The notes beneath the pieces were generated by a model. The model was not told the DNA's origin. It saw only the letters and a program-made list of their open reading frames with translations, and made no database searches. Below, piece after piece: positions 26,321 to 37,410 of a stretch of DNA of 64,000 nt. The stretch is from Brevibacterium sp. W7.2 (GTDB taxonomy: Bacteria > Actinomycetota > Actinomycetes > Actinomycetales > Brevibacteriaceae): positions 2,356,001 to 2,420,000 of the forward strand of contig NZ_CP073089.1 of assembly GCF_018137945.1 (NCBI RefSeq), in the 5' to 3' direction. Every line of letters starts with the position of its first letter. Position 1 is the stretch's first letter. Position numbers and translations under genes: made by a program.

Positions 26321-26881
26321 TCAGCGTATCGCGTTCAATAGCGAAGGAACGAGATCCGTCAAAGGCCAGGAGCTCCACCGAGTTTTGGTGCCAAACCAAC
26401 CTCGCGCGCCTACAGAGAGTGGCTTGACCATGATCAGGCATGGCGTGGCTTCACCCCAGAGATCGGTCTCCTCCAGCGGGAGAAAACCCCACTTCTCGTA
26501 GAACTGCCGCGTGCGGGCGTAATGCGGGTCCGAATGCGAGGCCCCCAGAGTCTTCACCTGCAACAAGGCCACGCGGCGGCGAACCGCGTCGTCCTCAATA
26601 GCCCGCAGCATCGCGGTGCCGACACCCGCCCCATGAACTGCCCGATCGACGACGATTAGATGCACCTCGGCAACGTGAGCGAAGTGACGTTCGACCAGCG
26701 TGACGCCAACGACACGGTCTCGGTCGTCCCGGACCGTCCAAGTCTCTTTCGAACGTGCGGCCTCGATGTACTCGGCGTTGGACTCAGACTGCCCGAACCT
26801 TTCGGGAACTGCAGCAAGCAAACGAGCCAGATCATCGGGCACTTGCTGGTCGAGCTCAGCGACCCAACCAATGCCACTCAC
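26321..26881 (-). CDS. GNAT acetyltransferase coupled to higA
   Basis: 186 residues from a GTG that overlaps the higA stop (GTGA at 26878-26881). VVGVTLVERHFAHVAEVHLIVV, AVHGAGVGTAMLRAIEDDAV (acetyl-CoA loop) and YARTRQFYEKWGFLPLEETD mark a GNAT. The C-terminal 30 residues (LSVGARGWFGTKTRWSSW) are atypical. The coupling to an antitoxin gene is notable: the enzyme may be an accessory of the HigBA module, but GNAT toxins usually pair with RHH antitoxins, so a toxin role is not assumed. Confidence 0.82.
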   Translation of the reverse strand: MSGIGWVAELDQQVPDDLARLLAAVPERFGQSESNAEYIEAARSKETWTVRDDRDRVVGVTLVERHFAHVAEVHLIVVDRAVHGAGVGTAMLRAIEDDAVRRRVALLQVKTLGASHSDPHYARTRQFYEKWGFLPLEETDLWGEATPCLIMVKPLSVGARGWFGTKTRWSSWPLTDLVPSLLNAIR

Positions 26882-27180
26882 GCGACGCTCAGCGGGGTGA
26901 TCGAAGCGATCTGCTCCCCCGCGAGTTCTTCCGCACGGTCGAGCTCGTAGTGACTCTGCAGGTTGATCCAGAATTCCGCAGATGTGCCGAAGTACCGCGC
27001 GAGACGCAGTGCGGTGTCTGCGGTGATCCCGCGCTTGCCGTGCACGATCTCATTGATCCGCCTGGGAGGGACGCCGATCGACACGGCGAGTTTGTTCTGG
27101 GTGATACCGAATCCCTCGATGAAGTCCTCCATGAGGACCTCCCCTGGGTGGATCGGCTCGATCTTGTCAGTGGTAGTCAA
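26878..27180 (-). CDS. higA: HigA-type XRE antitoxin
   Basis: 100 residues from a TTG at 27180, within the 3' end of higB and preceded by GGAGGTGGAGATCG. It reads TTTDKIEPIHPGEVLMEDF then GITQNKLAVSIGVPPRRINEIVHGKRGITADTALRLARYFG, the standard HigA/VapI helix-turn-helix order. It neutralises HigB and represses the operon. It overlaps higB by 14 nt and the GNAT by 4 nt. Confidence 0.9.
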   Translation of the reverse strand: MTTTDKIEPIHPGEVLMEDFIEGFGITQNKLAVSIGVPPRRINEIVHGKRGITADTALRLARYFGTSAEFWINLQSHYELDRAEELAGEQIASITPLSVA

Positions 27181-27448
27181 CGATCTCCACCTCCTCTGGT
27201 CCGGCGTCGGTCCACGCGAAGCAGATCCGCCACCGGTCGTTGATCCTGATGCTGTGCTGACCGGCCCGATCACCCTTGAGTGCCTCGAGCCGATTGCCGG
27301 GCGGGACACGGAGGTCCACAAGGTACTCTGCGGACCCCACCTGACGCAGCTTGCGCAACGCGACTCGGAGAATCCTCGGATCGATCGAGCGCACGCGTTC
27401 ACGGTGCCACAGCCGCTCGGTCTCCTTGTCGCCGAACGATCTGATCAC
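27167..27448 (-). CDS. higB: HigB-type mRNA interferase toxin (RelE superfamily)
   Basis: 93 residues from a GTG. MIRSFGDKETERLWHRERV opens the family, LRKLRQVGSAEYLVDLRVPPGNRLEALKGDRAGQHSIRINDRWRICFAWTD carries the conserved basic/aromatic catalytic face of HigB (R-x-x-P-G-N-R, IRINDRWRICF). It cleaves mRNA on ribosomes. TACACT ends 6 nt before the GTG, so the mRNA is probably leaderless, and a palindrome lies just upstream of it. Confidence 0.9.
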   Translation of the reverse strand: MIRSFGDKETERLWHRERVRSIDPRILRVALRKLRQVGSAEYLVDLRVPPGNRLEALKGDRAGQHSIRINDRWRICFAWTDAGPEEVEIVDYH

Positions 27449-27460
27449 GACTCCAGTGTA

Positions 27461-27475
27461 TGACGGGTTCCGTCA
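27461..27475. promoter_or_regulatory. TGACGG-GTT-CCGTCA operator upstream of higB
   Basis: A perfect 6-bp-arm inverted repeat directly upstream of the -10-like TACACT (27460-27455 on the minus strand) of higBA. The position, between the -10 and -35 regions, fits HigA autorepression. Confidence 0.6.
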
Positions 27476-27554
27476 ATAACGCTAGACGTCAAACCGGATC
27501 CACCGAGTTCCGGCACATTCCAACCTCTGCAGTTTGGCTGACGCGCGTCAGCCG

Positions 27555-28436
27555 TCAGCGCGTCGTCGGGTGCGCTCCCTGGCTTGGAGCCGCCAAGCTC
27601 GACAGCAGCTTCAAGCTTTCCTCGTGCGGCGAGCCGGGTTCAGCCGTGTAGATCGACAGGTCATGCCTGGCGCGCTTGCCCGTGGGGAGACCGACTGACT
27701 GGTATGTCAATTCGATCTCGCCAACCTCGGGGTGCTGCAGGCGCTTAGTGCCTTCGTGTCGGATGCGGATGTCATGGGAGGCCCAGTATGCGGAGAACGC
27801 CTCACTTGCCGTGGACAGCTCGCCGATGAGTTCGCGCAGGATCTTATCGTAAGGATCGCGTCCGGCCTCGGCCCGCAGGAGCGCCACAGTTACGGCGGCT
27901 CCTGACTCCCAGTCGATGAAGAAGTCCTTGGATCCTTCGTCGAGGAAGTGGTAGCGGGCGAAGTTCGCTGTCCCATCCACAGAGGTAGGGCTGGCGAACA
28001 TCGGTGAGTGCAGAGCGCGACCGAGGGCATTGGAGCCGATGACGTCGAGGCGCCCATTGCGCACGAAAGCGGCGGAGCCGATGATCGAGTCGAGCATCCA
28101 CTGCACCTGTGGCGCGATCGGGACCTCGCGGCGACGGACAGACCTCCGGTGGGTGGGCTTGGCGGCGCGGGCGAGGTCGTTCAGGTAGGTGCGTTCGTCG
28201 TCATCGAGTCGCAGCGCTTCGGCGACCGCGTCGAGGACCTCGGCAGACACTTCGCCGATGTGGCCCTTCTCCAGGCGGGTGTACCACTCGGTGCTCACCC
28301 CGGCGAGAACAGCGACCTCTTCGCGGCGCAGTCCCGGCACACGCCGGCGAGTGCTGGTAGGAAGCCCGACCATATCGGGCGTCAGCTTCGCGCGGCGGCT
28401 GGAAAGGAAGCCTTTGATGTCGTCGCGATTGTCCAT
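27555..28436 (-). CDS. XRE-family regulator with MmyB-like ligand-binding domain
   Basis: 293 residues. N-terminal helix-turn-helix (about 5-80): FLSSRRAKLTPDMVGLP, then RRVPGLRREEVAVLAGVSTEWYTRLEKG. The C-terminal domain (about 105-280) has the MmyB features WMLDSIIGSAAFVRNGRLDVIGSNALGRAL and FIDWESGAAVTVALLRAEAGRDPYD, a possible fatty-acid or small-ligand pocket. It is divergent from the MFS-ADH pair and probably represses it. TACTCT ends 6 nt before the ATG (leaderless). Confidence 0.92.
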   Translation of the reverse strand: MDNRDDIKGFLSSRRAKLTPDMVGLPTSTRRRVPGLRREEVAVLAGVSTEWYTRLEKGHIGEVSAEVLDAVAEALRLDDDERTYLNDLARAAKPTHRRSVRRREVPIAPQVQWMLDSIIGSAAFVRNGRLDVIGSNALGRALHSPMFASPTSVDGTANFARYHFLDEGSKDFFIDWESGAAVTVALLRAEAGRDPYDKILRELIGELSTASEAFSAYWASHDIRIRHEGTKRLQHPEVGEIELTYQSVGLPTGKRARHDLSIYTAEPGSPHEESLKLLSSLAAPSQGAHPTTR

Positions 28437-28445
28437 GGTTCAAGA

Positions 28446-28486
28446 GTAGAAGGGTTCCCATGCGCGAAGGGGGGTCGATCTTCTAC
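28446..28486. promoter_or_regulatory. Inverted heptamers between the XRE regulator and MFS gene
   Basis: GTAGAAG (28446-28452) and CTTCTAC (28480-28486) are perfect inverted arms with 27 nt between. The first overlaps the -10 candidate of the regulator, so the pair could hold two subunits of the XRE repressor. Confidence 0.35.
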
Positions 28487-28573
28487 CCCCTATGAACTCG
28501 ACCTTCCCTGCCTGCGCGAACGGATGCCAAATGGATATCGAGCAAACATCGTCCAACCGTCAATGAGGTATCC

Positions 28574-29818
28574 ATGCACAACGAAGCCGCCACGGCTTTC
28601 ATCCCGACGCAAACCGCACCCAGTGACGACACGCCCAAACTCCGCCTTCCGCTCGTCGTCTACGTCCTGGCGCTGGGCACGTTCCTGATGCTCACGACCG
28701 AGTTCGTGATCGCGGGCATCCTGCCCGAGATCGCCGGCGACCTGGACATCTCGCTCGGCCAAGCCGGGTCATTGATCACAGTGTTCGCAACCGGCATGGT
28801 CATCGGCGCACCGCTGCTGACTATGGTGACATTGCGGCTGTCGAAGAAGCTCACGCTCCTCATCGCACTGATCGTGTTCGTCGCCGGGCATCTGGTCGTC
28901 GCGCTCGCCGAGGACCTCACAGTCCTCACCGGCGCGCGCTTCGTCACCGCACTCGCCACCGGCGCCTTCTGGGCCGTCTCCGCAGTCGTGGCCTCGAACG
29001 TCGTCGGCTCGTCGTTGAAGTCCTCCGCGGTGGGAGTGGTCGCCGCCGGAGGTTCGCTGGCCACAGTGATTGGAGTTACGATCGGAGCGTACCTCGCCCA
29101 ACATGTAGGCTGGCGGGGCACCTTCTGGGCGCTCGGGATCGCCGCGGCGGTCGCCGTGGTATTCGTCGCCCGACTGGTCCCGGCGGACGAGGCACAGCCC
29201 GAGGAGTCTTCCGTGCTGTCCGGGCTCGCGGATCTGCGAACACCGCGCCTCTGGCTCGTGTTGGCCGCCTGCCTGACCACCACGGGCGGCGTGCTCGCCG
29301 CGTACTCGTTCATCGCACCGATTCTCACCATCCAGGCCGGAGTTTCTGCTGGTCTCGTGCCGCTGGTGCTGGCAGGTTTCGGCATCTGCTCCTTCCTCGG
29401 CACCCTACTCGGCGGACGACTGGGCGACAAGCATGCCCACGCCGTGACGATCGCGGCCCCCGCGCTGACGACGCTCGTGCTGCTGGCGATGTCCCTGCTG
29501 CCTGGGTCGACCTGGACCACCGTCGTGCTCGTCGTGCTGCTGGGGGCATTCGGACTCAGCGCCAACAGTGTGCTCATCCACCTCGCCGTCGGCTACGCCG
29601 GCCGCGCGGCCACTCTCGGCTCAGGACTCGCTGTCGCAGCATTCAACGCCGGTACCGCCATCGGCACCACCATCGCCGGAGCCACCCTGACCACTTCGCT
29701 GGGCCTGTCCGGTCCCCCGGTCGCGGGCACGGTGATCGTCGCGCTGTCCCTGATTCCGGCATTCGTCCTCGCGGTCATGACACGCAGAAGCATCGCCGAG
29801 CCAACCCGGTCCGTCTGA
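28574..29818 (+). CDS. Major facilitator superfamily efflux transporter
   Basis: 414 residues, 12 predicted helices. It starts LPLVVYVLALGTFLMLTTEFVIAGILPEIAGDL, the opening of the DHA1/AraJ-Cmx group of exporters, and RLVPADEA marks the central loop. GGRLGDKHAHA resembles the second A-like motif in the C-terminal half. Substrate may be a drug or sugar. The zinc alcohol dehydrogenase follows 34 nt later, and the divergent XRE gene is the likely regulator. Confidence 0.92.
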   Translation: MHNEAATAFIPTQTAPSDDTPKLRLPLVVYVLALGTFLMLTTEFVIAGILPEIAGDLDISLGQAGSLITVFATGMVIGAPLLTMVTLRLSKKLTLLIALIVFVAGHLVVALAEDLTVLTGARFVTALATGAFWAVSAVVASNVVGSSLKSSAVGVVAAGGSLATVIGVTIGAYLAQHVGWRGTFWALGIAAAVAVVFVARLVPADEAQPEESSVLSGLADLRTPRLWLVLAACLTTTGGVLAAYSFIAPILTIQAGVSAGLVPLVLAGFGICSFLGTLLGGRLGDKHAHAVTIAAPALTTLVLLAMSLLPGSTWTTVVLVVLLGAFGLSANSVLIHLAVGYAGRAATLGSGLAVAAFNAGTAIGTTIAGATLTTSLGLSGPPVAGTVIVALSLIPAFVLAVMTRRSIAEPTRSV

Positions 29819-29852
29819 CCACTCAACATCACCCCACGAAGGAGAACACACC

Positions 29853-30896
29853 ATGCGCGCAACGCTCATGTACAAAGCAGGCGACGTCCGGATCGAGGAT
29901 GTCCCCGACTCGATCATCAAGCATCCGACAGACGCTCTGGTGCGTGTCACCGCGTCCTGCATCTGTGGCTCAGACCTGCACCCCTACCACCAGATGACCC
30001 ATGAGAATGGCCCTGCCCGCATGGGCCACGAGCTCATCGGCGTAATCGAAGATCTCGGCAGCGAGGTCACCACTCTGAAGAAGGGCGATTTGGTCGTCTC
30101 CCCGTTCGCTATCTCGGACAACGTGTGCGAGTTCTGCCGTGAGAGTCTCCAGACCTCCTGCATCCACCACGAGGCGACTTTCCTCGACGGCATCGCCGAC
30201 GAGGGCGGCCAGGCCGAAGCCATCCGCATTCCGCTCGCGGACGGCACCCTGGTGAAGCTGCCCGTCGCCGAAGACTCAGCGCTCGTCCCCTCGCTGCTGA
30301 CCCTGGCCGACGTGCTCGGCACCGGTCACCACGCCGCGAAGATGGCCGGAGTCACGCCCGGTCAGCGCGTGACGGTGATCGGCGACGGCGCGGTCGGCCT
30401 CATGGCAGTCCTGTCCGCCAAGCGACTCGGCGCAGAACAGATCATCCTGATGGGTCGTCACACTGGCCGCACCAGCCTCGGACGCGAGTTCGGGGCCACC
30501 GACATCGTCGCCGAGCGCGGCGAGGAGGGCATCGCGAAGGTCCGAGACCTCACCGCCGGCCACGGCGCCCACGCCGTGCTCGAGGCCGTCGGCCATTTGC
30601 CGGCTTACGAGCAGGCGCTCGGCGTCGTCCGCCCAGGCGGTGTGATCAGCCGAGTCGGTGTCCCGCAGTACGAAGACGCCCCGATCGGATTCGGCAGCTT
30701 GTTCCGGCACAACATCCGCCTCGCCGGCGGACCCGCTCCGGTCCGCGCTTACATCGAGGACCTCATGCCTGACATCCTCGATGGCACCATCAACCCCGGC
30801 GAGGTCTTCGATGTCGAGACGGATCTCGACGGTGTCCCGGACGGATACCGCGACATGGACGAGCGACGGAGTCTGAAGGTCCTTATCCGTCCGTAA
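29853..30896 (+). CDS. Zinc-dependent alcohol dehydrogenase (MDR family)
   Basis: 347 residues. Catalytic zinc ligands appear in SCICGSDLHPYH (Cys and the following His) and MGHELIGVIE; a structural-zinc-like CEFCRESLQTSC has three, not four, cysteines. The Rossmann loop is VTVIGDGAVGLMAVL. It resembles IMP-dehydrogenase-unrelated, glutathione-independent aldehyde/alcohol dehydrogenases linked to XRE operons. The substrate is unknown. AAGGAG precedes the ATG. It is probably co-transcribed with the MFS gene. Confidence 0.92.
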   Translation: MRATLMYKAGDVRIEDVPDSIIKHPTDALVRVTASCICGSDLHPYHQMTHENGPARMGHELIGVIEDLGSEVTTLKKGDLVVSPFAISDNVCEFCRESLQTSCIHHEATFLDGIADEGGQAEAIRIPLADGTLVKLPVAEDSALVPSLLTLADVLGTGHHAAKMAGVTPGQRVTVIGDGAVGLMAVLSAKRLGAEQIILMGRHTGRTSLGREFGATDIVAERGEEGIAKVRDLTAGHGAHAVLEAVGHLPAYEQALGVVRPGGVISRVGVPQYEDAPIGFGSLFRHNIRLAGGPAPVRAYIEDLMPDILDGTINPGEVFDVETDLDGVPDGYRDMDERRSLKVLIRP

Positions 30897-30900
30897 CCCT

Positions 30901-31197
30901 GTGAGCGGCGGCGGAGTTGCACTGCCCGCCGTTGCGACGACAAACGGCCTCGCCATCCATGCACTCGCCCGCGACGGGGACCGGGAGTTCCTGTCCTCCC
31001 GCGTCGCGCTGTTCGCTGCTGACGCCACCGACCCGACTTTCATCGAAGCAGCGGCCCAGCGCATCGACCTTGTCGTGCTCGCCCACGCCGCCCACAGCTC
31101 CCCACGAGGAGTTGGAGAAAGTCGACTTCGGCGAGGTGATGCCGGTGCTCGAGGTGATCAAGTGCCATGACATCGCGATCGTGCTGTTGACACACTT
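30901..31197 (+). pseudogene. Frameshifted NAD(P)-binding (SDR-like) remnant
   Basis: Four nt after the dehydrogenase stop, a frame from GTG 30901 reads VSGGGVALPAVATTNGLAIH and IDLVVLAHAAHSS, a Rossmann-like start. The continuation (PHEELEKVDFGEVMPVLEVI) is in another frame after a slip near 31101-31106 (CCCC). The protein then breaks off about 100 residues in. It looks like a decayed short-chain reductase once in the MFS-dehydrogenase operon. The family assignment is tentative. Confidence 0.4.
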
Positions 31198-31198
31198 C

Positions 31199-31297
31199 GA
31201 GTCACCGCGCCGACGCAGCTCCACAACCAGGAACTGGGCATCTTCGAACTCAGGCGCCGCAGCGAATAGCTCGTCCGTCGGAATCAAAAACAGCGAA
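31199..31297 (-). pseudogene. Fragment downstream of the original ychF stop
   Basis: Eleven nt after the stranded ychF stop, a TTG-initiated frame (31287) reads IPTDELFAAAPEFEDAQFLV then VELRRRGDSK and dissolves into sequence antisense to the SDR remnant. The compact, acidic/hydrophobic composition of the first 30 residues looks coding, so it may be the start of a truncated gene. I recognise no family. Confidence 0.3.
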
Positions 31298-31326
31298 CTA
31301 GATGTTGAAGCGGAACTCCACCACGT
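31298..31326 (-). repeat. Left copy of the ychF 3' end (original chromosomal end)
   Basis: 31304-31326 is identical over 23 bp to 36258-36280 inside ychF. On the minus strand it encodes VVEFRFN, followed here by ATC TAG (Ile, stop) rather than GTG TGA (Val, stop). This is what is left of the host's own ychF end after an element inserted. It defines the left boundary of the island; only the 23-bp match is seen directly, integration is inferred. Confidence 0.85.
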
Positions 31327-31453
31327 TCCGTAGCCGAATCACCTTTGGCGACAGCGACTCGCGCTTTGGCGAGCGTACGTCGCTCGTGATGCGCCATCGC
31401 ACGCCTATCCTGGGCAAGAGGGTGACCACAGGCGCGCGAGGAGGACCGAGGGA

Positions 31454-32210
31454 ATGGCATTGAGTCCGTCGCAGGGGCGCCGACCGGGACTGCACCCGGC
31501 GTTGTCGACGCGTCAGGGGTTCGCGCTCCTTGGGGAGGCCGGGTCAGTGCGCAACCTCCTGCGCGACTCCGTGGAGGCGATCCGAAGCCTTCGCTTCGTC
31601 TCCCTGCACGGTGATGGCGTATTCACTCTGGGTAGCATCGGCGTGGAGAAGGCCATGAAGGTCATGCTCGGCTGCACCGAGGTCGAGGCCGCGGGCTCAT
31701 GGCCCTCCAAGAAGACCCTCAAAGACGGACCGGGGCCACGACATCCAGAGGTTAAGTCAGCTGCTCGACACGGCGATCGAACGCGGCCTGACGCGGTCCA
31801 CCCACACCGGGTACGCGGAGAGTCTCTTTGATCGGATCAGCGGAAGCACCACGCTCCCGCTTCTCTTCGCGACGTTCGCTCGGTACGGGAAGTCGGGGCG
31901 CTTCCACCACTTGGACGTCCTCGCCACCAACGAGCCCGGCTCGGACGATCCACCGTCCGAGTACTGGGAGCGAGTCGAGTTCCACGTGAGGACCACAAAT
32001 CGAGAGATCGCCGAAGTCCCTTATGGAGACAATCAGGCGCTGAACGAGTACGAGGCCCGACTGCGGGGCCGAATCGCCGACGAGCTGGAGGCCTGGTGGT
32101 CCTGCGTCCACCGCCTCGGCGTCCAGGGCTGCTTCGGCGACCTTGGCGAGAAGATCGGCTGGGAGATCTGGGAGCCAGGGCGCTCCGGGCCGCCAATCGT
32201 GAAGAACTAG
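31454..32210 (+). pseudogene. HEPN-like protein, frameshifted at a G4 run
   Basis: The first frame (31454 on) reads LLRDSVEAIRSLRFVSLHGDG and TLGSIGVEKAMKVMLGC, then TLKDGPG before a shift; the second frame resumes GHDIQRLSQLLDTAI and ends at 32210. Removing one G from GGGG (31732-31735) restores a 251-residue protein. Helical content, the GVEKAMK motif and GHDI resemble HEPN-like toxins, but I cannot place the family. The start has GAGGAGG upstream. It may be a true pseudogene, a phase-variable gene or a sequencing error. Confidence 0.5.
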
Positions 32211-32303
32211 TCCAACATCATGTCCCCCGGGTAATCACAGACGAGTCCTAGTACCAGGCGGGCAGGCCAAGCGTAGGCCGGGCTTCCTCAGTGTGGCGCT
32301 TCA

Positions 32304-32309
32304 TATACT
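32304..32309 (+). promoter_or_regulatory. TATACT -10 element of the Mrr-like gene
   Basis: A perfect -10-type TATACT ending 6 nt before the ATG at 32316, with no Shine-Dalgarno. This suggests a leaderless transcript. I see no convincing -35 hexamer. Confidence 0.55.
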
Positions 32310-32315
32310 GACTAC

Positions 32316-33128
32316 ATGGAGAAGGTGCCCGAACAACCACTCGACGATGAGGCGATGGACGTCGCCGGGCCTGAGCGCGACTTCGCCCTCGGCTCCCTTG
32401 ACTTCGAAGGGCTATCGCCCACCGATTTCGAAGAGTTCTGCTTCGATCTCATGGCCGAGAGTGGCTTCTCCAATGTGGACTGGAGAAAGGGGACTCCGCT
32501 CGCCGCATCGCCGTCCGATCGTGGCCGAGATATCGTCGCGCGCCGGTCCATGAAGGACATTGACGGGCACGAGTACGAGGAGCGCTGGTTCGTCGACTGC
32601 AAGCACTACAAGCGCGGCGTTCCTCCCGACGTGCTCCAGGGGGCCATCGCCTGGGCCAGTGCTGAGCGCCCGTCAGTGCTCCTCTTCATTGCATCCGGCT
32701 ATCTCACCAACGGGGCTAAGGATTGGATCGCGGACTACCAGCGCTCAAACAATCCGCCCTTCCGGATCCGCATATGGGAGAAGCCGCAGCTCCTTCGACT
32801 CGTTGAGCAGAACCTAGATCTAGCTTTCAAGCACGATGTTGGGACGAGCACGCTGCGACGGGTGTCAGAGATTCTGGAGGCCGAGTCAATGCTCATGGAT
32901 CGGCTCTGGTACGGGCGCAAACCGGCGGACGAGAACGTGGACCACTACGATTGGCCCGATAACATCAAAGCCGGAATGCTCGCAGCAAAGCGCCAAGTCG
33001 AGGAGCAGTACGGCAAGGAAGAGCTAGCGAAGGATGTGGAGTCAGACTGGGCGTGGGGCTACCTCTCGGGACGGATCTCCGCTGTGCGCTGGGTGCTGGG
33101 GGACGACTGGCACAACCTCGACAGCTGA
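32316..33128 (+). CDS. Mrr-like restriction endonuclease-fold protein
   Basis: 270 residues. The PD-(D/E)xK-type core is at about 33-140: LSPTDFEEFCFDLMAESGF, then RGRDIVARR (Asp72) and WFVDCKHYKRG (Asp94-Cys-Lys96), then PSVLLFIASGYLTNGAKDWI. This is the Mrr_cat layout, where the enzyme cleaves modified or foreign DNA. The C-terminal half (about 175-270) is acidic and predicted helical, ending RWVLGDDWHNLDS, and has no recognised fold. It lies on the island between the HEPN-like gene and a convergent AAA+ operon. Confidence 0.8.
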   Translation: MEKVPEQPLDDEAMDVAGPERDFALGSLDFEGLSPTDFEEFCFDLMAESGFSNVDWRKGTPLAASPSDRGRDIVARRSMKDIDGHEYEERWFVDCKHYKRGVPPDVLQGAIAWASAERPSVLLFIASGYLTNGAKDWIADYQRSNNPPFRIRIWEKPQLLRLVEQNLDLAFKHDVGTSTLRRVSEILEAESMLMDRLWYGRKPADENVDHYDWPDNIKAGMLAAKRQVEEQYGKEELAKDVESDWAWGYLSGRISAVRWVLGDDWHNLDS

Positions 33129-33266
33129 CGAATAATGATCGAACCACACGGGGGACTTCCTATTGCGAGATGGCTACTTAGATGCTTCATCGTGCAGTCG
33201 TGCGCCCGGTCCGCCATCCCCGATGCGGTAACCACAACGTCATGACCCACGACGACCATTACAAAA

Positions 33267-33629
33267 TCACCAGTAAATCGCTACCACTTCGGCCTCAAGG
33301 AAGTTCACTGGCGCGTTCTCTACGTTACCTTCTGGCCCGTCGGTGACAGCCGACTCGTTGAGCAATGCGAGTCGCGCGACGGCCTGGTACGCCTGTCGAA
33401 GCGTCCGCACCAGTTGCCGGTCGATCGGAGCCGGCTCGGTTGACTCGGCGAGTGAAGGAGAAGCCTCGACCGCCGCGACTACCTTTTCGAACCCTCTTCG
33501 CACGATCCCGATGTCCCGCAGTTCCTCTAACGTGCCTACGGATTTTGCAGCGTCTGTGGAGACCTCCGAAAGCATTTCCGCTGAGGTATCCCGGGTTGTC
33601 AGCTGGGCGAGGTCGCGTCCGAACGGCAC
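33267..33629 (-). CDS. Small helical protein following the DUF6414-like gene
   Basis: 120 residues from GTG 33629, in the same frame as the preceding gene and separated from it by TAA and two codons. SAEMLSEVSTDAAKSVGTLE, LRDIGIVRRGFEKVVAAVEA and QLVRTLRQAYQAVARLAL are amphipathic helices. No family is recognised and no ribosome-binding site is visible, so it is probably translated by reinitiation after the upstream stop. It may alternatively be the C-terminal domain of a once longer protein. It is the last gene of the AAA+ operon. Confidence 0.6.
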   Translation of the reverse strand: MPFGRDLAQLTTRDTSAEMLSEVSTDAAKSVGTLEELRDIGIVRRGFEKVVAAVEASPSLAESTEPAPIDRQLVRTLRQAYQAVARLALLNESAVTDGPEGNVENAPVNFLEAEVVAIYW

Positions 33630-33635
33630 AAGCGC

Positions 33636-34691
33636 TTAGTCGCGGAGTACCTCGGAAACCGCTGGGGCGTCAGCCTGCTGAGTAACACTTCGAGCCTTCT
33701 CGAACAGGTACGAGAGATCGCGAATTTGGTCCCCGACCTCGGGGAGGAAGCGGTCGAAGACATCAGCGAGCTTGACCGGTGACCAGGATGTCTGGATCCC
33801 AGGTCTGGATAGCCGAGCGTAGACCGAGTAGGCCGAGTCGCCGAAGAGTACGCGGCGAACGTCCTTCCAATAGAGCGGCAGCTCCGTCACTCCCACGAGG
33901 TGTACTTCGCTCGCATCGTGGTCGAGCACGCTACCGTTAGCGATCATTGACGCGTCGACGAGCCATGAAGCGTCCTCGACCACGACCACGCGGTGGCTGG
34001 TCACACGGGCTTGGAGGGGCACCAAGTCAACGAGAAGACGAGATAGCAATTCGAGTACCCGCTGAACCTCTCCCACGGCGCTCTCCTCAATGCCAAACAT
34101 CTCGGCGCGCCCTTCGACAAGGTCGATCATCGATGACACGGCTGCCGTGAACTGGTAGCTCCACTCGGGGCTGAGTTCGACTTGGACCTCGACGACGTCC
34201 CCACGGAGGAGGTCTTGGGCGCGCACTGCACGGCGTTGTTTCTCGAGCTTAGGGAGGTGATGTGCCAAGGACTTTACGGTGGCAACTGCTGCCGGCTTCG
34301 GACGATCTGGCTGGTCTTCGACTGAGACTCTCAGGTCTGCGTCGCCGATCCGTAGTGTGCGGAAGGTGCCCTGGGCGACCGCACGGCGCACCACCTCTTG
34401 CGATGTGGTTCGAGAGGATGCCGATCGCGTTGACATGCCTAACCCGGGACCCGCGGGCGTTGACGGAAGCGCGAGCGAGGTACCCGCGTCGGAGGAGGTG
34501 GTGGCACTGAGAGTGTCTTTGAACGACTCGGGCACCGAGCCGTGCCGAGCGGCCACCAAGCTGGTGACACTGGTCTCGTCGAGGTACACGAACTCACGGC
34601 GCTTGTGCTTCCACTCCTGGGACTGCCGTCGCCGCCGCCAAGCACGTCCAACTGCGATGAAGGGAGCTTTAACGATGGTGAGAATGCTCAT
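33636..34691 (-). CDS. DUF6414-like protein
   Basis: 351 residues. Basic N-terminus (RAWRRRRQSQEWKHKRREF), then FVYLDETSVTSLVAARHGS, which I associate with DUF6414 (YLDE-x-SV-x-SL motif). A Ser/Thr-rich segment (about 60-95) follows, then two alpha/beta parts: VVEVQVELSPEWSYQFTAAV and VHLVGVTELPLYWKDVRRVLF. The C-terminus ends WSPVKLADVFDRFLPEVGDQI. Function unknown. The ATG overlaps the AAA+ stop (ATGA at 34688-34691), so the two are made together and probably interact. Confidence 0.7.
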   Translation of the reverse strand: MSILTIVKAPFIAVGRAWRRRRQSQEWKHKRREFVYLDETSVTSLVAARHGSVPESFKDTLSATTSSDAGTSLALPSTPAGPGLGMSTRSASSRTTSQEVVRRAVAQGTFRTLRIGDADLRVSVEDQPDRPKPAAVATVKSLAHHLPKLEKQRRAVRAQDLLRGDVVEVQVELSPEWSYQFTAAVSSMIDLVEGRAEMFGIEESAVGEVQRVLELLSRLLVDLVPLQARVTSHRVVVVEDASWLVDASMIANGSVLDHDASEVHLVGVTELPLYWKDVRRVLFGDSAYSVYARLSRPGIQTSWSPVKLADVFDRFLPEVGDQIRDLSYLFEKARSVTQQADAPAVSEVLRD

Positions 34692-35932
34692 TCACGCCCC
34701 TCCTGGCGTCGGGAGATTTCGCGGTTGCGAGCGGCCCGCGCTAGCCCGGCAGTGACGTCTTCAGCACAGAGTTCATCTCGCTCGTCAAGCACCGCCAACA
34801 CACCGGCCTCGGTCCAGATCATTGCCAGTTCTGCTGCGCTCCAACGGTCGGTAGTTTCGACCAAGAGTTGCCAGTCGGCACAGTCGGCACCATGTACCCC
34901 GCGGGCAGATGCCTGAAGGATCTTCAGTCGATCTTCGGGGCTGGGGTTACCCTCAAACTCGAGTTTGTATGTAAGTCGCCCGGGTCGAAGAAGTGCGGTA
35001 TCGAGCGCGCCGGGGAGGTTGGTGGAGGCAATCACTAGCACGCCCTTTCTGGCGTCGAACCCGTCAAGGGCCGTTAGGAACTGCCAGACGAAGCGGCTCG
35101 CATACTCCGGGGCGTCATCTCCTCGACTGGCTACAATACTGTCGAGCTCGTCAAAGAAAATGATGGCAGGGGCGTGTTCCTCGGCGTGCCGGAACAACGA
35201 CCGCAGCCGTTGCTCGCTCTCGCCCACCCACTTGTTGATAATTTCCGGCCCGTCGACCAAGTAGAAGCGAGTGCCGATCTCTTTGCTCAAAACACGAGCA
35301 AGGTGCGTCTTGCCGGTGCCAGACGGACCGCTAAAGAGGATGCCCTTCACAGGGTTAACGCCGATTCGTTGAAGACGCTGCACAGGATCAAGAGCGACGC
35401 GCGCCAGTTCAAGCGCTCGCTCGACCAACGCGCTCGAACCCCCAAAGTCGGCCAAAGAGACCTCACCCGGGTCTTTAACGAAGCTCGTGGGATCGAGCTC
35501 GTCCTCGGCGCGGCCGAAACGGTCGATGGGCTTGCTACTCAAAACTGGCCCTGGTCGACCGTCCACATCGACGGCAAGTGTCTGCCCTTTGACGAAAGGG
35601 GTCGTCTCGCGCTGAGCGAATGTCTGGAGCCTGCCGTTGATTTCAAGCACGGCGGTCGATCCATCCTCGCTGATCAAACTCACGGTTGCAACGTCTCCCC
35701 CGCGAATCAGCCAGTCTTCTTCGGTGAGCAACCTGACCGGGTCGTCATCGTCGACCTCGTCGGGAACGTAGAGGATCTGGCCAGCCTCAACATTGTCCAT
35801 CAGCGACTGGCGAAACCAGCCCGAGGCGCCATCGCGACGGTCGAACCAGACCAGGCCGGCTTCCTCGTCAACTCTCCTCACTCGCAAAATCGAGCCGTAG
35901 CTAAGGTCTACCTCGTCGCTCGTGTTGCTCAC
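34688..35932 (-). CDS. Classic-clade AAA+ ATPase with N-terminal beta domain
   Basis: 414 residues from GTG 35932. The N-terminal about 140 residues (SYGSILRVRRVDEEAGLVWF, then VATVSLISEDGSTAVLEING) look like two small beta-barrel (OB-like) units, as in Mpa/ARC or p97-type regulators. The AAA+ module: Walker A GPSGTGKT (202-209), pore loop KWVGES (234-239), Walker B IIFFDE (257-262), second-region-of-homology ending ALLRPGRL with arginine finger. It should be a hexameric unfoldase or remodeller. It lacks the C-terminal proteasome-docking tail. Start: TATACT (35945-35940) ends 7 nt before the GTG; an upstream TTG (35962) would lie above it. Confidence 0.85.
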   Translation of the reverse strand: MSNTSDEVDLSYGSILRVRRVDEEAGLVWFDRRDGASGWFRQSLMDNVEAGQILYVPDEVDDDDPVRLLTEEDWLIRGGDVATVSLISEDGSTAVLEINGRLQTFAQRETTPFVKGQTLAVDVDGRPGPVLSSKPIDRFGRAEDELDPTSFVKDPGEVSLADFGGSSALVERALELARVALDPVQRLQRIGVNPVKGILFSGPSGTGKTHLARVLSKEIGTRFYLVDGPEIINKWVGESEQRLRSLFRHAEEHAPAIIFFDELDSIVASRGDDAPEYASRFVWQFLTALDGFDARKGVLVIASTNLPGALDTALLRPGRLTYKLEFEGNPSPEDRLKILQASARGVHGADCADWQLLVETTDRWSAAELAMIWTEAGVLAVLDERDELCAEDVTAGLARAARNREISRRQEGRE

Positions 35933-35939
35933 GCCCGGC

Positions 35940-35945
35940 AGTATA
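35940..35945 (-). promoter_or_regulatory. TATACT -10 element of the AAA+ operon
   Basis: A perfect TATACT on the minus strand ending 7 nt before GTG 35932, the same arrangement as at the Mrr-like gene. It supports the leaderless GTG as the true start rather than the upstream TTG. Confidence 0.5.
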
Positions 35946-36251
35946 TCTGCGAGTTCCGGCAACTCCGCGTGGCAACACGCCCCCGCGACGCATCCCGGGG
36001 ACGTGTCTCACCTATCCGTCGTTGCGTCGATCGCTGGCAGCTGTGGGCGACTCGCGGCGCACCGAGCCGCCGAACCGGCCCTAGCCACCGGGATCAACGA
36101 AGAGGCGCGGTTGCCAATCGCCTCGCGGGTCTCACGCGCCCCCAGAGACCAGACGGGCAGAGCCATAGTCCCGCGAAGGGGCAAACCGATGTGGTGTGGA
36201 CGGGATCGCGAAGCAGACCGCTAGCCCGACACGAACTCAGTAGCGCCAAGT
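35946..36251. other. Gene-free stretch between the AAA+ operon and ychF
   Basis: About 300 bp at the right edge of the island. Open frames here show no family sequence, and I see no strong hairpin or tRNA-like piece. It is presumably the upstream region of the AAA+ operon plus the element end. Confidence 0.4.
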
Positions 36252-37337
36252 TCACACGTTGAAGCGGAACTCCACCACGTCCCCATCGACCATGACGTAG
36301 TCCTTGCCTTCCATCCGCACCTTGCCGGCGGACTTGGCGGCCGCCATCGAGCCGGTGGCGTCGAGATCGTCGAAGGAGACGACCTCGGCCTTGATGAAGC
36401 CCTTCTGGAAGTCGGTGTGGATGACTCCGGCCGCCTCGGGGGCAGTCGCACCCTTCGGGATCGTCCACGCGCGCGATTCCTTCGGCCCTGCGGTCAGATA
36501 GGTCTGGAGACCGAGCGTGTCGAACCCGACGCGGGCGAGTTGATCGAGTCCGCTCTCCTCCTGACCGGTCGACTCGAGCATCTCCCGCGCCTCGTCCTCG
36601 TCGAGCTCTGCGAGCTCGGACTCGAACTTCGCATCGAGGAAGATCGCCTCGACCGGGGCCACCAGCGCCCGCATCTCGTCCTTCTTCGCCTCATCGCCGA
36701 GCACCTCGTCATCGACATTGAAGACGTAGAGGAACGGCTTCGTCGTCATCAGCTGAAGCTCCCGCAGCGGCGAGACGTCGAACTTGTCCGTGTGCATCGC
36801 CTGGTAGAGCGTCCGCCCGCTCTCGAGGATCTCCGTGGCGGCATCCATCGCCGTGAGCAGCTCGGCCGGCGCCCGCTTGCCCTTGACGTCCTTCTCGATC
36901 CGCGGGCGCGCCTTCTCCAGCGTCTGGAGGTCGGCGAGGATGAGCTCGGTGTTGATCGTGTCGATGTCATCGGCCGGGCTGATCTTGCCGTCGACGTGGA
37001 CGACATCGTCATCGACGAAACCGCGGATGACCTGGCAGATCGCGTCGGCTTCGCGGATGTTCGCAAGGAACTGGTTGCCCAGCCCCTCACCCTCGGAGGC
37101 ACCGCGCACGATTCCGGCGATGTCGACGAAGTCGACGGTCGCGTTGAGGATCCGCTCCGACCCGAAGATCTCGGCCAGGCGCGTCAGCCGCGCATCCGGC
37201 AGGGGCACAACGCCCACATTCGGCTCGATCGTCGCGAACGGATAGTTCGCCGCGAGAACCTGGTTCTTGGTCAGTGCATTAAACATGGTCGACTTGCCGA
37301 CATTGGGCAGTCCCACGATTCCGATTGTCAGTGCCAC
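36252..37337 (-). CDS. ychF: Redox-regulated ATPase/GTPase YchF
   Basis: 361 residues from GTG 37337 (ALTIGIVGLPNVGKSTMFNAL), the usual YchF start; a TTG three codons upstream is in frame. G1 loop GLPNVGKS, DIAGIVRGASEGEGLGNQFL and FNVDDEVLGDEA match Obg-family YchF, with a C-terminal TGS domain. It binds ATP and acts in translation and stress. Its last residues VVEFRFNV come from the right repeat (36258-36280); the original ending I-stop is stranded at 31298. A TAGACT sits about 8 nt before the GTG. Confidence 0.96.
   Translation of the reverse strand: MALTIGIVGLPNVGKSTMFNALTKNQVLAANYPFATIEPNVGVVPLPDARLTRLAEIFGSERILNATVDFVDIAGIVRGASEGEGLGNQFLANIREADAICQVIRGFVDDDVVHVDGKISPADDIDTINTELILADLQTLEKARPRIEKDVKGKRAPAELLTAMDAATEILESGRTLYQAMHTDKFDVSPLRELQLMTTKPFLYVFNVDDEVLGDEAKKDEMRALVAPVEAIFLDAKFESELAELDEDEAREMLESTGQEESGLDQLARVGFDTLGLQTYLTAGPKESRAWTIPKGATAPEAAGVIHTDFQKGFIKAEVVSFDDLDATGSMAAAKSAGKVRMEGKDYVMVDGDVVEFRFNV
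36258..36280. repeat. Right copy of the 23-bp ychF-end repeat
   Basis: Identical to 31304-31326. It lies within the ychF coding end, so the insertion kept the gene in frame while exchanging the last codon and stop. Confidence 0.85.
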
Positions 37338-37410
37338 GGTAGTCAAGTCTATCCCGGCGCCGAGGCGGTCCCCGAATCCTCGTGTCCGTGCCGTCTGTCA
37401 CCCTGAAGTC

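What the first reader, a model, noticed from the sequence alone, without database searches (positions are those of the whole stretch)
33267..35932. Candidate novel AAA+/DUF6414-like/small-protein module
Seen: a classic-clade AAA+ ATPase with intact Walker A/B, pore loop and arginine finger, an N-terminal double beta unit, a 4-nt overlap to a DUF6414-like protein, then a 120-residue helical protein. Known: island-borne AAA+ ATPases with uncharacterised partners often belong to phage-defence systems. Inferred: the ATPase remodels or regulates the DUF6414-like protein. I know no described system with this exact set.
Basis: partly seen in the sequence, partly recalled or inferred. Interest (0 to 1): 0.8.

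Follow-up and report, generated by a model that had tools for sequence, protein, structure and literature searches.

The report
AAA+ ATPase–DUF6414 pair, gene two broken
A widespread and apparently undescribed two-gene module, a protein-unfolding ATPase and its constant partner, sits in a small island that looks like part of a phage-defence store; in this genome a stop codon has split the partner gene, so the 'third small gene' is only the partner's cut-off tail.

Summary
The AAA+ ATPase and the DUF6414 gene with its 4-nt overlap are real. The 'third gene' is not: ORF3 lies in the same frame as the DUF6414 gene, one TAA (33636-33638) downstream. It carries the C-terminal end that every intact homologue has in one chain (...AIYW). 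The module is therefore AAA+/DUF6414, and gene 2 is nonsense-interrupted here.

The pair is tightly conserved. In 61 of 61 testable loci found by DUF6414 patterns alone, the ATPase lies directly upstream (Actinomycetota, Chloroflexota, Acidobacteriota, Pseudomonadota, Ignavibacteria, haloarchaea). The two proteins' distances correlate at r=0.92. Neighbours include type I and III R-M, Gabija and CBASS genes, while a random-region control shows almost none. No relative was found in viral contigs or phages, in PADLOC 2023, or in open-access text. The ATPase is not Mpa/ARC: the genome has its own Mpa beside the 20S proteasome.

Best reading: an undescribed candidate defence module in which an unfoldase ring acts on its obligate partner; function is inferred, not shown. 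The island (31304-36257) lies between copies of the ychF 3' end, in what looks like an integron-like tandem array with defence and toxin-antitoxin cargo and no recombinase inside. That array may be the more interesting lead.

The parts
34688..35962 (-). Classic-clade AAA+ ATPase, single AAA domain, N-terminal double beta unit (second unit OB-like). Alternative GTG start at 35932.
   Evidence: PF00004 1.4e-36; model pLDDT 87.6, Rpt/PAN/p97-like, Z about 28; 59-sequence alignment.
33636..34691 (-). DUF6414 gene, N-terminal 351 codons; ATGA overlap with the ATPase gene.
   Evidence: PF19952 5.5e-33; homologues continue in one frame to ...AIYW.
33636..33638 (-). In-frame TAA stop that interrupts the DUF6414 gene; the aligned codon in the closest relative (Nocardioides alpinus, L110) is AAG (Lys).
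33267..33629 (-). ORF3 = severed C-terminal part of the DUF6414 protein (helical segment plus final core strand ...FLEAEVVAIYW). Could be re-initiated at GTG 33629, 6 nt after the stop.
   Evidence: same frame; DUF-family profile hit; last strand at residues 463-473 of the 474-residue model, final blocks pLDDT 96.
32316..33128 (+). Mrr_cat restriction-endonuclease-like protein in the same island, on the opposite strand.
   Evidence: PF04471 1.4e-13; PADLOC PDC-M58A 3.5e-13.
31454..32210 (+). Possibly one frameshifted gene of unknown family (ORFs 31454-31831 and 31911-32210).
   Evidence: no family match. That the two ORFs are one gene was not tested.
36258..36283 (-). Proximal att-like repeat = 3' end of ychF (gene 36252-37346, minus).
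   Evidence: D2; none expected by chance in shuffles
31304..31329 (-). Distal att-like repeat (25 of 26 identical), with inverted arms CGGAAC..GTTCCG; with the proximal copy it bounds a 4,954-bp unit.
27480..27519 (-). Third, degenerate repeat copy, followed by a HigB/HigA toxin-antitoxin pair (27170-27448 and 26881-27180, minus).

Best explanation
The locus carries a two-gene module: a classic AAA+ unfoldase (of the kind that forms hexamers) and its obligate partner, a DUF6414 protein. The partner's predicted core is a beta sheet closed by the protein's own last strand, ending in a near-invariant Tyr-Trp-COOH. The most likely working is that the ATPase ring docks on the partner and uses ATP to remodel it, loading, activating or resetting it. 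This would resemble the way TRIP13 remodels HORMA proteins, and the purpose would be defence against phage or other mobile DNA. The pair travels as cargo of small islands. In this genome gene 2 is cut by a TAA at codon 352, recent enough that the downstream reading frame has not decayed, so this copy is probably inactive unless the tail is made by re-initiation. Shown: pairing, conservation, the stop, the island ends, defence neighbourhoods. Inferred: complex formation, remodelling, defence.
For: ATPase gene directly upstream in 61/61 testable loci recovered with DUF6414 patterns only, 35/61 with a 4-nt overlap, and in 6/6 plasmid loci examined. ATPase and partner distances correlate (r=0.918; best of 2000 permutations 0.34). 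No other gene recurs. Neighbours within 4 genes match 242 and 334 PADLOC models at E<=1e-10 against 20 in an equal random-region control; identified genes include HsdR, E1-E2 of CBASS, GajA, REase_III, LmuB, a Hachiman-like helicase and PDC-S06. All intact AAA-linked partners end in YW while orphan DUF6414s end in YR, or YR plus a tail, as expected if the last residue serves the ATPase. The C-terminal strand is a confident part of the model. Identity downstream of the stop (61%, against 76% upstream) matches the ratio in intact pairs (59-69% against 70-74%).
Against: No functional data. Fewer than half the loci were shown to have a strong known defence gene close by, and the tally could not be resolved for every locus. 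The partner has no recognisable catalytic motif or clear fold match, so effector, adaptor and substrate cannot be told apart. The control regions came from Actinobacteria only, while the loci span phyla. In this genome the module is probably broken.
Confidence: 0.5

Rival explanations
1. The DUF6414 protein is an adaptor or nucleic-acid-binding platform, not a substrate: its OB-like core recognises phage DNA or a nucleoprotein and delivers it to the ATPase, which pulls the complex apart.
For: Weak but repeated OB-type rows (PriB, SSB, MCM OB, CST) span 113/164-474 of the model (Z 3.6-5); the pair often lies beside DNA-targeting systems.
Against: Z values below 8 may only mean a common arrangement; no positively charged or ssDNA-binding motif was tested.
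Confidence: 0.2
2. Toxin-regulator pair: DUF6414 is a growth-inhibiting effector, held in check or released by the ATPase, acting by abortive infection.
For: Independent DUF6414-side breakages with an intact ATPase gene: window TAA, Halorientalis TAA, Solirubrobacteraceae L086. Translational coupling with the ATPase first.
Against: No toxin-like fold or motif found; orphan DUF6414 genes without the ATPase exist, which argues against toxicity of the domain itself; one ATPase-side breakage was also seen (L084).
Confidence: 0.15
3. A proteasome-linked or quality-control ATPase (Mpa/ARC/PAN type) with an accessory protein, unrelated to defence.
For: Rpt/PAN-like AAA and OB domain; the genome has a 20S proteasome.
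Against: TIGR03689 score 103 bits against a cut-off of 504.75; a true Mpa sits beside the proteasome genes; no HbYX tail in 59/59 ATPases; patchy distribution on islands and plasmids.
Confidence: 0.07
4. The split is functional: the TAA with a GTG 6 nt further on makes a two-chain DUF6414 protein by re-initiation, so the first reader's small protein exists as a separate chain.
For: Stop-start spacing suits re-initiation; the downstream frame is still coding-like; Halorientalis has an in-frame TAA followed by nearly the same bases (TAAGCGCGTGTG against TAAGCGCTTGTG).
Against: The cut falls inside a predicted helix (345-364); no obvious Shine-Dalgarno close to the GTG; nearly all other homologues are single-chain.
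Confidence: 0.12

Closest known systems
DUF6414 (Pfam PF19952)
   Same: Gene 2 matches well above the gathering score; shares the N-terminal REFVYLDE-type strand and the C-terminal A-I-Y strand.
   Different: AAA-linked members have about 100-150 extra residues before the last strand and end in YW; orphan members are about 290-350 aa and end in YR or a YR tail.
IetAS anti-phage system
   Same: The best PADLOC hits of the ATPase are IetA models (9e-29), on the AAA domain only.
   Different: The partner is not a subtilisin-like protease; the NCBIfam IetA cut-off is not reached (86 of 510 bits).
TRIP13 / HORMA of CBASS
   Same: Two-gene logic of an AAA+ remodeller with a dedicated partner; weak TRIP13 hit (3e-11).
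   Different: Partner shows no HORMA match; no cyclase noticed in this island; different N-domain.
Mpa/ARC, PAN, Rpt proteasomal ATPases
   Same: Same AAA subclass and OB-type N-domain by predicted structure.
   Different: No HbYX tail, far below the family cut-off, not linked to proteasome genes.
Chromosomal integron cassette arrays / tandem att-bounded genomic islands
   Same: Same-orientation att-like repeats at intervals, variable cargo, toxin-antitoxin cassettes.
   Different: Repeats copy the ychF 3' end, not attC sites; no integrase found in or next to the array.

Membership tests
DUF6414 (PF19952) | Score above the Pfam gathering cut-off | tested here: met
   115.4 bits against 25
AAA-linked DUF6414 pair (family defined here) | ATPase gene directly upstream, single-chain partner ending in YW | tested here: inconclusive
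   ATPase and YW end are present, but the partner is not single-chain here because of the TAA
Proteasome ATPase Mpa/ARC (TIGR03689) | Equivalog score cut-off 504.75 | tested here: not met
   103 bits; the genome's true Mpa scores 762 at 1921867-1923393
Proteasome ATPase Mpa/ARC/PAN | C-terminal HbYX docking tail | tested here: not met
   0 of 59 homologues
Cdc48/p97 | Two AAA domains, TIGR01243 cut-off 802.65 | tested here: not met
   one AAA domain, 178 bits
IetAS | IetA equivalog score (NF042959, cut-off 510) | tested here: not met
   86 bits
IetAS | Subtilisin-like protease partner IetS | tested here: not met
   no PADLOC or Pfam protease hit for gene 2, ORF3 or the Mrr gene
CBASS TRIP13/HORMA | HORMA-domain partner | tested here: not met
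   no hit of the partner to any PADLOC model at E<=1
Anti-phage defence system | Protects cells against phage | not testable with these tools
   needs a plating assay
Anti-phage defence system | Enriched next to known defence genes | tested here: met
   242 and 334 PADLOC models matched against 20 in the control; named examples
Site-specific genomic island | Flanking direct repeats that restore the target gene | tested here: met
   25 of 26-nt repeat, ychF kept intact
Site-specific genomic island | Own integrase in the element | tested here: not met
   the two tyrosine and five serine recombinase matches of the genome all lie outside the window

The most novel reading that the evidence does not exclude
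An undescribed anti-phage system spread over bacteria and haloarchaea: a proteasome-type AAA+ ring, uncoupled from any protease, works on a dedicated partner whose core is closed by its own C-terminal strand and whose last residue (Trp instead of the orphan family's Arg) is read by the ring. In this genus it is carried as a cassette of an integron-like array at the ychF 3' end.
Probability: 0.3. Interest if true: 0.75.

Novelty: new variant of a known kind. Interest (0 to 1): 0.52.

Why it matters
The pair is conserved across phyla and both prokaryotic domains, absent from PADLOC 2023 and from open-access text, and repeatedly next to known defence systems, so it is a well-defined candidate for a plating assay. 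It would add an unfoldase-plus-partner logic to bacterial immunity and give the uncharacterised DUF6414 family a first function. The correction matters too: anyone cloning the three 'genes' from this genome would be testing a broken copy.

Tried and rejected
Third gene as an independent protein: rejected (same frame, conserved C-terminus). HbYX-type role for the partner's IYW tail in 20S docking: considered because the tail fits hydrophobic-Tyr-X, set aside because the tail is a confidently predicted strand, is shared (AIYR) by orphan DUF6414s, and the pair also occurs in Novosphingobium, Devosia and Rhizobium, which from general knowledge lack a 20S proteasome. Sequence search of the partner against PDB: nothing below E 0.06. 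Foldseek against PDB and BFVD: nothing at E<=1e-3; VIA-align rows reach Z 6 at best, with short helical or OB-type matches. Literature: no paper names DUF6414; other searches gave no description of the pair or of a ychF array. Phages: no DUF6414, viral contigs none; phage hits of the ATPase cover the AAA domain only. Standalone DUF6414 neighbours were clustered without a recurrent partner.

Full report
OBSERVATION. The window's minus strand holds an AAA+ gene (34688-35962) overlapping by ATGA a DUF6414 gene (33636-34691). ORF3 (33267-33629) is in the same frame as DUF6414...EVLRD-TAA-ALVPFGRD.... Intact homologues run through this point without a stop and end in the same ...[DE]x[VI]AIYW; in the nearest relative, Nocardioides alpinus L110 (ATPase 82%, partner 69% identical), the stop codon is AAG. 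ORF3 is therefore the partner's C-terminal quarter.

HOW BROKEN IS IT. The AlphaFold model of the read-through protein (pLDDT 85, pTM 0.72) puts the stop inside helix 345-364. It puts the last residues 463-473 in a strand; the final blocks of ten have pLDDT 96. The cut thus removes a confident structural element. The part beyond the stop has not decayed: window/L110 identity is 76% before and 61% after, against 70-74% and 59-69% in intact pairs. The interruption is recent, or the tail is still made; a GTG lies 6 nt after the TAA. A similar in-frame TAA splits the Halorientalis marina copy, by chance or not with nearly the same following bases, and the Solirubrobacteraceae copy L086 is also split.

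THE PAIR IS REAL. A scan of 84,980 species genomes with DUF6414 patterns only (no ATPase information) returned 62 loci. In all 61 where the upstream side is held the ATPase gene is next door, 35 with a 4-nt overlap. Hosts are Actinomycetota, Chloroflexota, Acidobacteriota, Pseudomonadota, an Ignavibacterium and haloarchaea. The six annotated plasmid loci examined agree. ATPase and partner distance matrices correlate at r=0.918 (best of 2000 permutations 0.34). No third gene recurs, apart from three loci where the pair sits at the end of a type I R-M operon. AAA-linked partners end in YW (58 of 59 rows, the exception being cut by its contig end), whereas the orphan DUF6414 proteins whose end could be read finish in YR or a YR tail.

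DEFENCE NEIGHBOURHOOD. Genes within four positions of the pair matched 242 and 334 PADLOC models at E<=1e-10 in two sets of 106 and 108 proteins. An equally built control of 108 proteins from 20 regions at fixed arbitrary coordinates of actinobacterial genomes matched 20, mostly generic. Individually confirmed: type I HsdR (L085), CBASS E1-E2 (L082), GajA (L097), type III REase (L108), LmuB (L081), a Hachiman-like/PDC-M23 helicase (L075) and PDC-S06 (L094). In the window the neighbour is an Mrr_cat protein. Limits: tallies are by protein, not by locus; control genomes are all actinobacterial.

WHAT THE ATPASE IS. The model (pLDDT 87.6) has two beta units and one AAA module; the best structural neighbours are Rpt, PAN, FtsH and p97 AAA modules, with the second beta unit aligning to the Rpt OB domain. 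It is not the housekeeping Mpa/ARC: 103 bits against a cut-off of 505, no HbYX tail in 59 homologues, and the genome's Mpa (762 bits) lies beside its 20S genes elsewhere. It is not IetA by the curated cut-off, and the IetS protease is missing.

MECHANISM. The obligate pairing, coupled translation and matched evolution argue for a physical complex. A threading ring with no protease tail and a partner closed by its own conserved C-terminal strand argue for remodelling of the partner, with TRIP13/HORMA (remodelling of HORMA proteins by TRIP13: PMC4439613, abstract) as the nearest working analogy, not a family membership. The terminal Trp confined to ATPase-linked partners is the most testable contact. 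Rivals: adaptor with an OB-like nucleic-acid platform; effector held by the ATPase; functional split.

THE ISLAND. The module lies between two copies of a 26-nt repeat, the 3' end of ychF at 36258-36283 and a copy at 31304-31329, 25 of 26 identical, none expected by chance. Across the genus the same repeat recurs downstream of ychF, always in the same orientation, at 0.5-10 kb spacing, with up to five copies in 20 kb. The units carry candidate defence genes (PDC-S06, Old, Abi_2, GajA, ApeA), regulators, enzymes and a recurrent HigBA-type unit. A degenerate third copy and HigBA stand at about 27.5 kb in the window. No tyrosine recombinase lies in these arrays; this genome has two, presumably the Xer pair (inferred from their presence in every genome of the set), and G114 has only those two and no serine resolvase hit, yet three repeats. 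What moves these units is unexplained.

VERDICT. A real, conserved, apparently undescribed two-gene module, probably defensive, misread as three genes because this copy is interrupted.

Noticed in passing
window 26881-36283; L178-L197 (20 kb downstream of ychF in 20 same-genus genomes): Integron-like tandem array at the 3' end of ychF: same-orientation repeats GGRACGTGGTGGAGTTCCGSTTYAAC, distal copies with inverted arms CGGAAC..GTTCCG, at 0.5-10 kb spacing, 2-5 copies in 13 of 20 genomes, cargo of candidate defence genes, toxin-antitoxin and metabolic genes, no recombinase inside.
   Followed up: partly
window 26881-27448: HigB/HigA toxin-antitoxin pair directly behind a degenerate repeat copy; related units follow the repeat in several relatives (L178, L179, L180, L187 and others).
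   Followed up: partly
own genome 1504613-1504631 and 1511709-1511727 (L200, L201): Two further same-orientation repeat-like sites 7.1 kb apart, each in a frame ending in a similar C-terminus (..HAVEFRTGIPSGSKK*..NFVEFRSGLTSGGKK*), possibly a second array.
   Followed up: no
L062 2058-2069; window 33627-33638: Two independent in-frame TAA codons in DUF6414 genes are followed by nearly identical bases (TAAGCGCGTGTG and TAAGCGCTTGTG), at different places in the protein; chance or a re-initiation context is not resolved.
   Followed up: no
window 31454-32210: Possible frameshifted gene of unknown family inside the island, together with the broken partner suggesting decay of the cargo.
   Followed up: no
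L026-L050: Orphan DUF6414 proteins (about 290-350 aa, ending AIYR or AVYR, or a YR tail) are common in Actinomycetes with no recurrent neighbour.
   Followed up: partly
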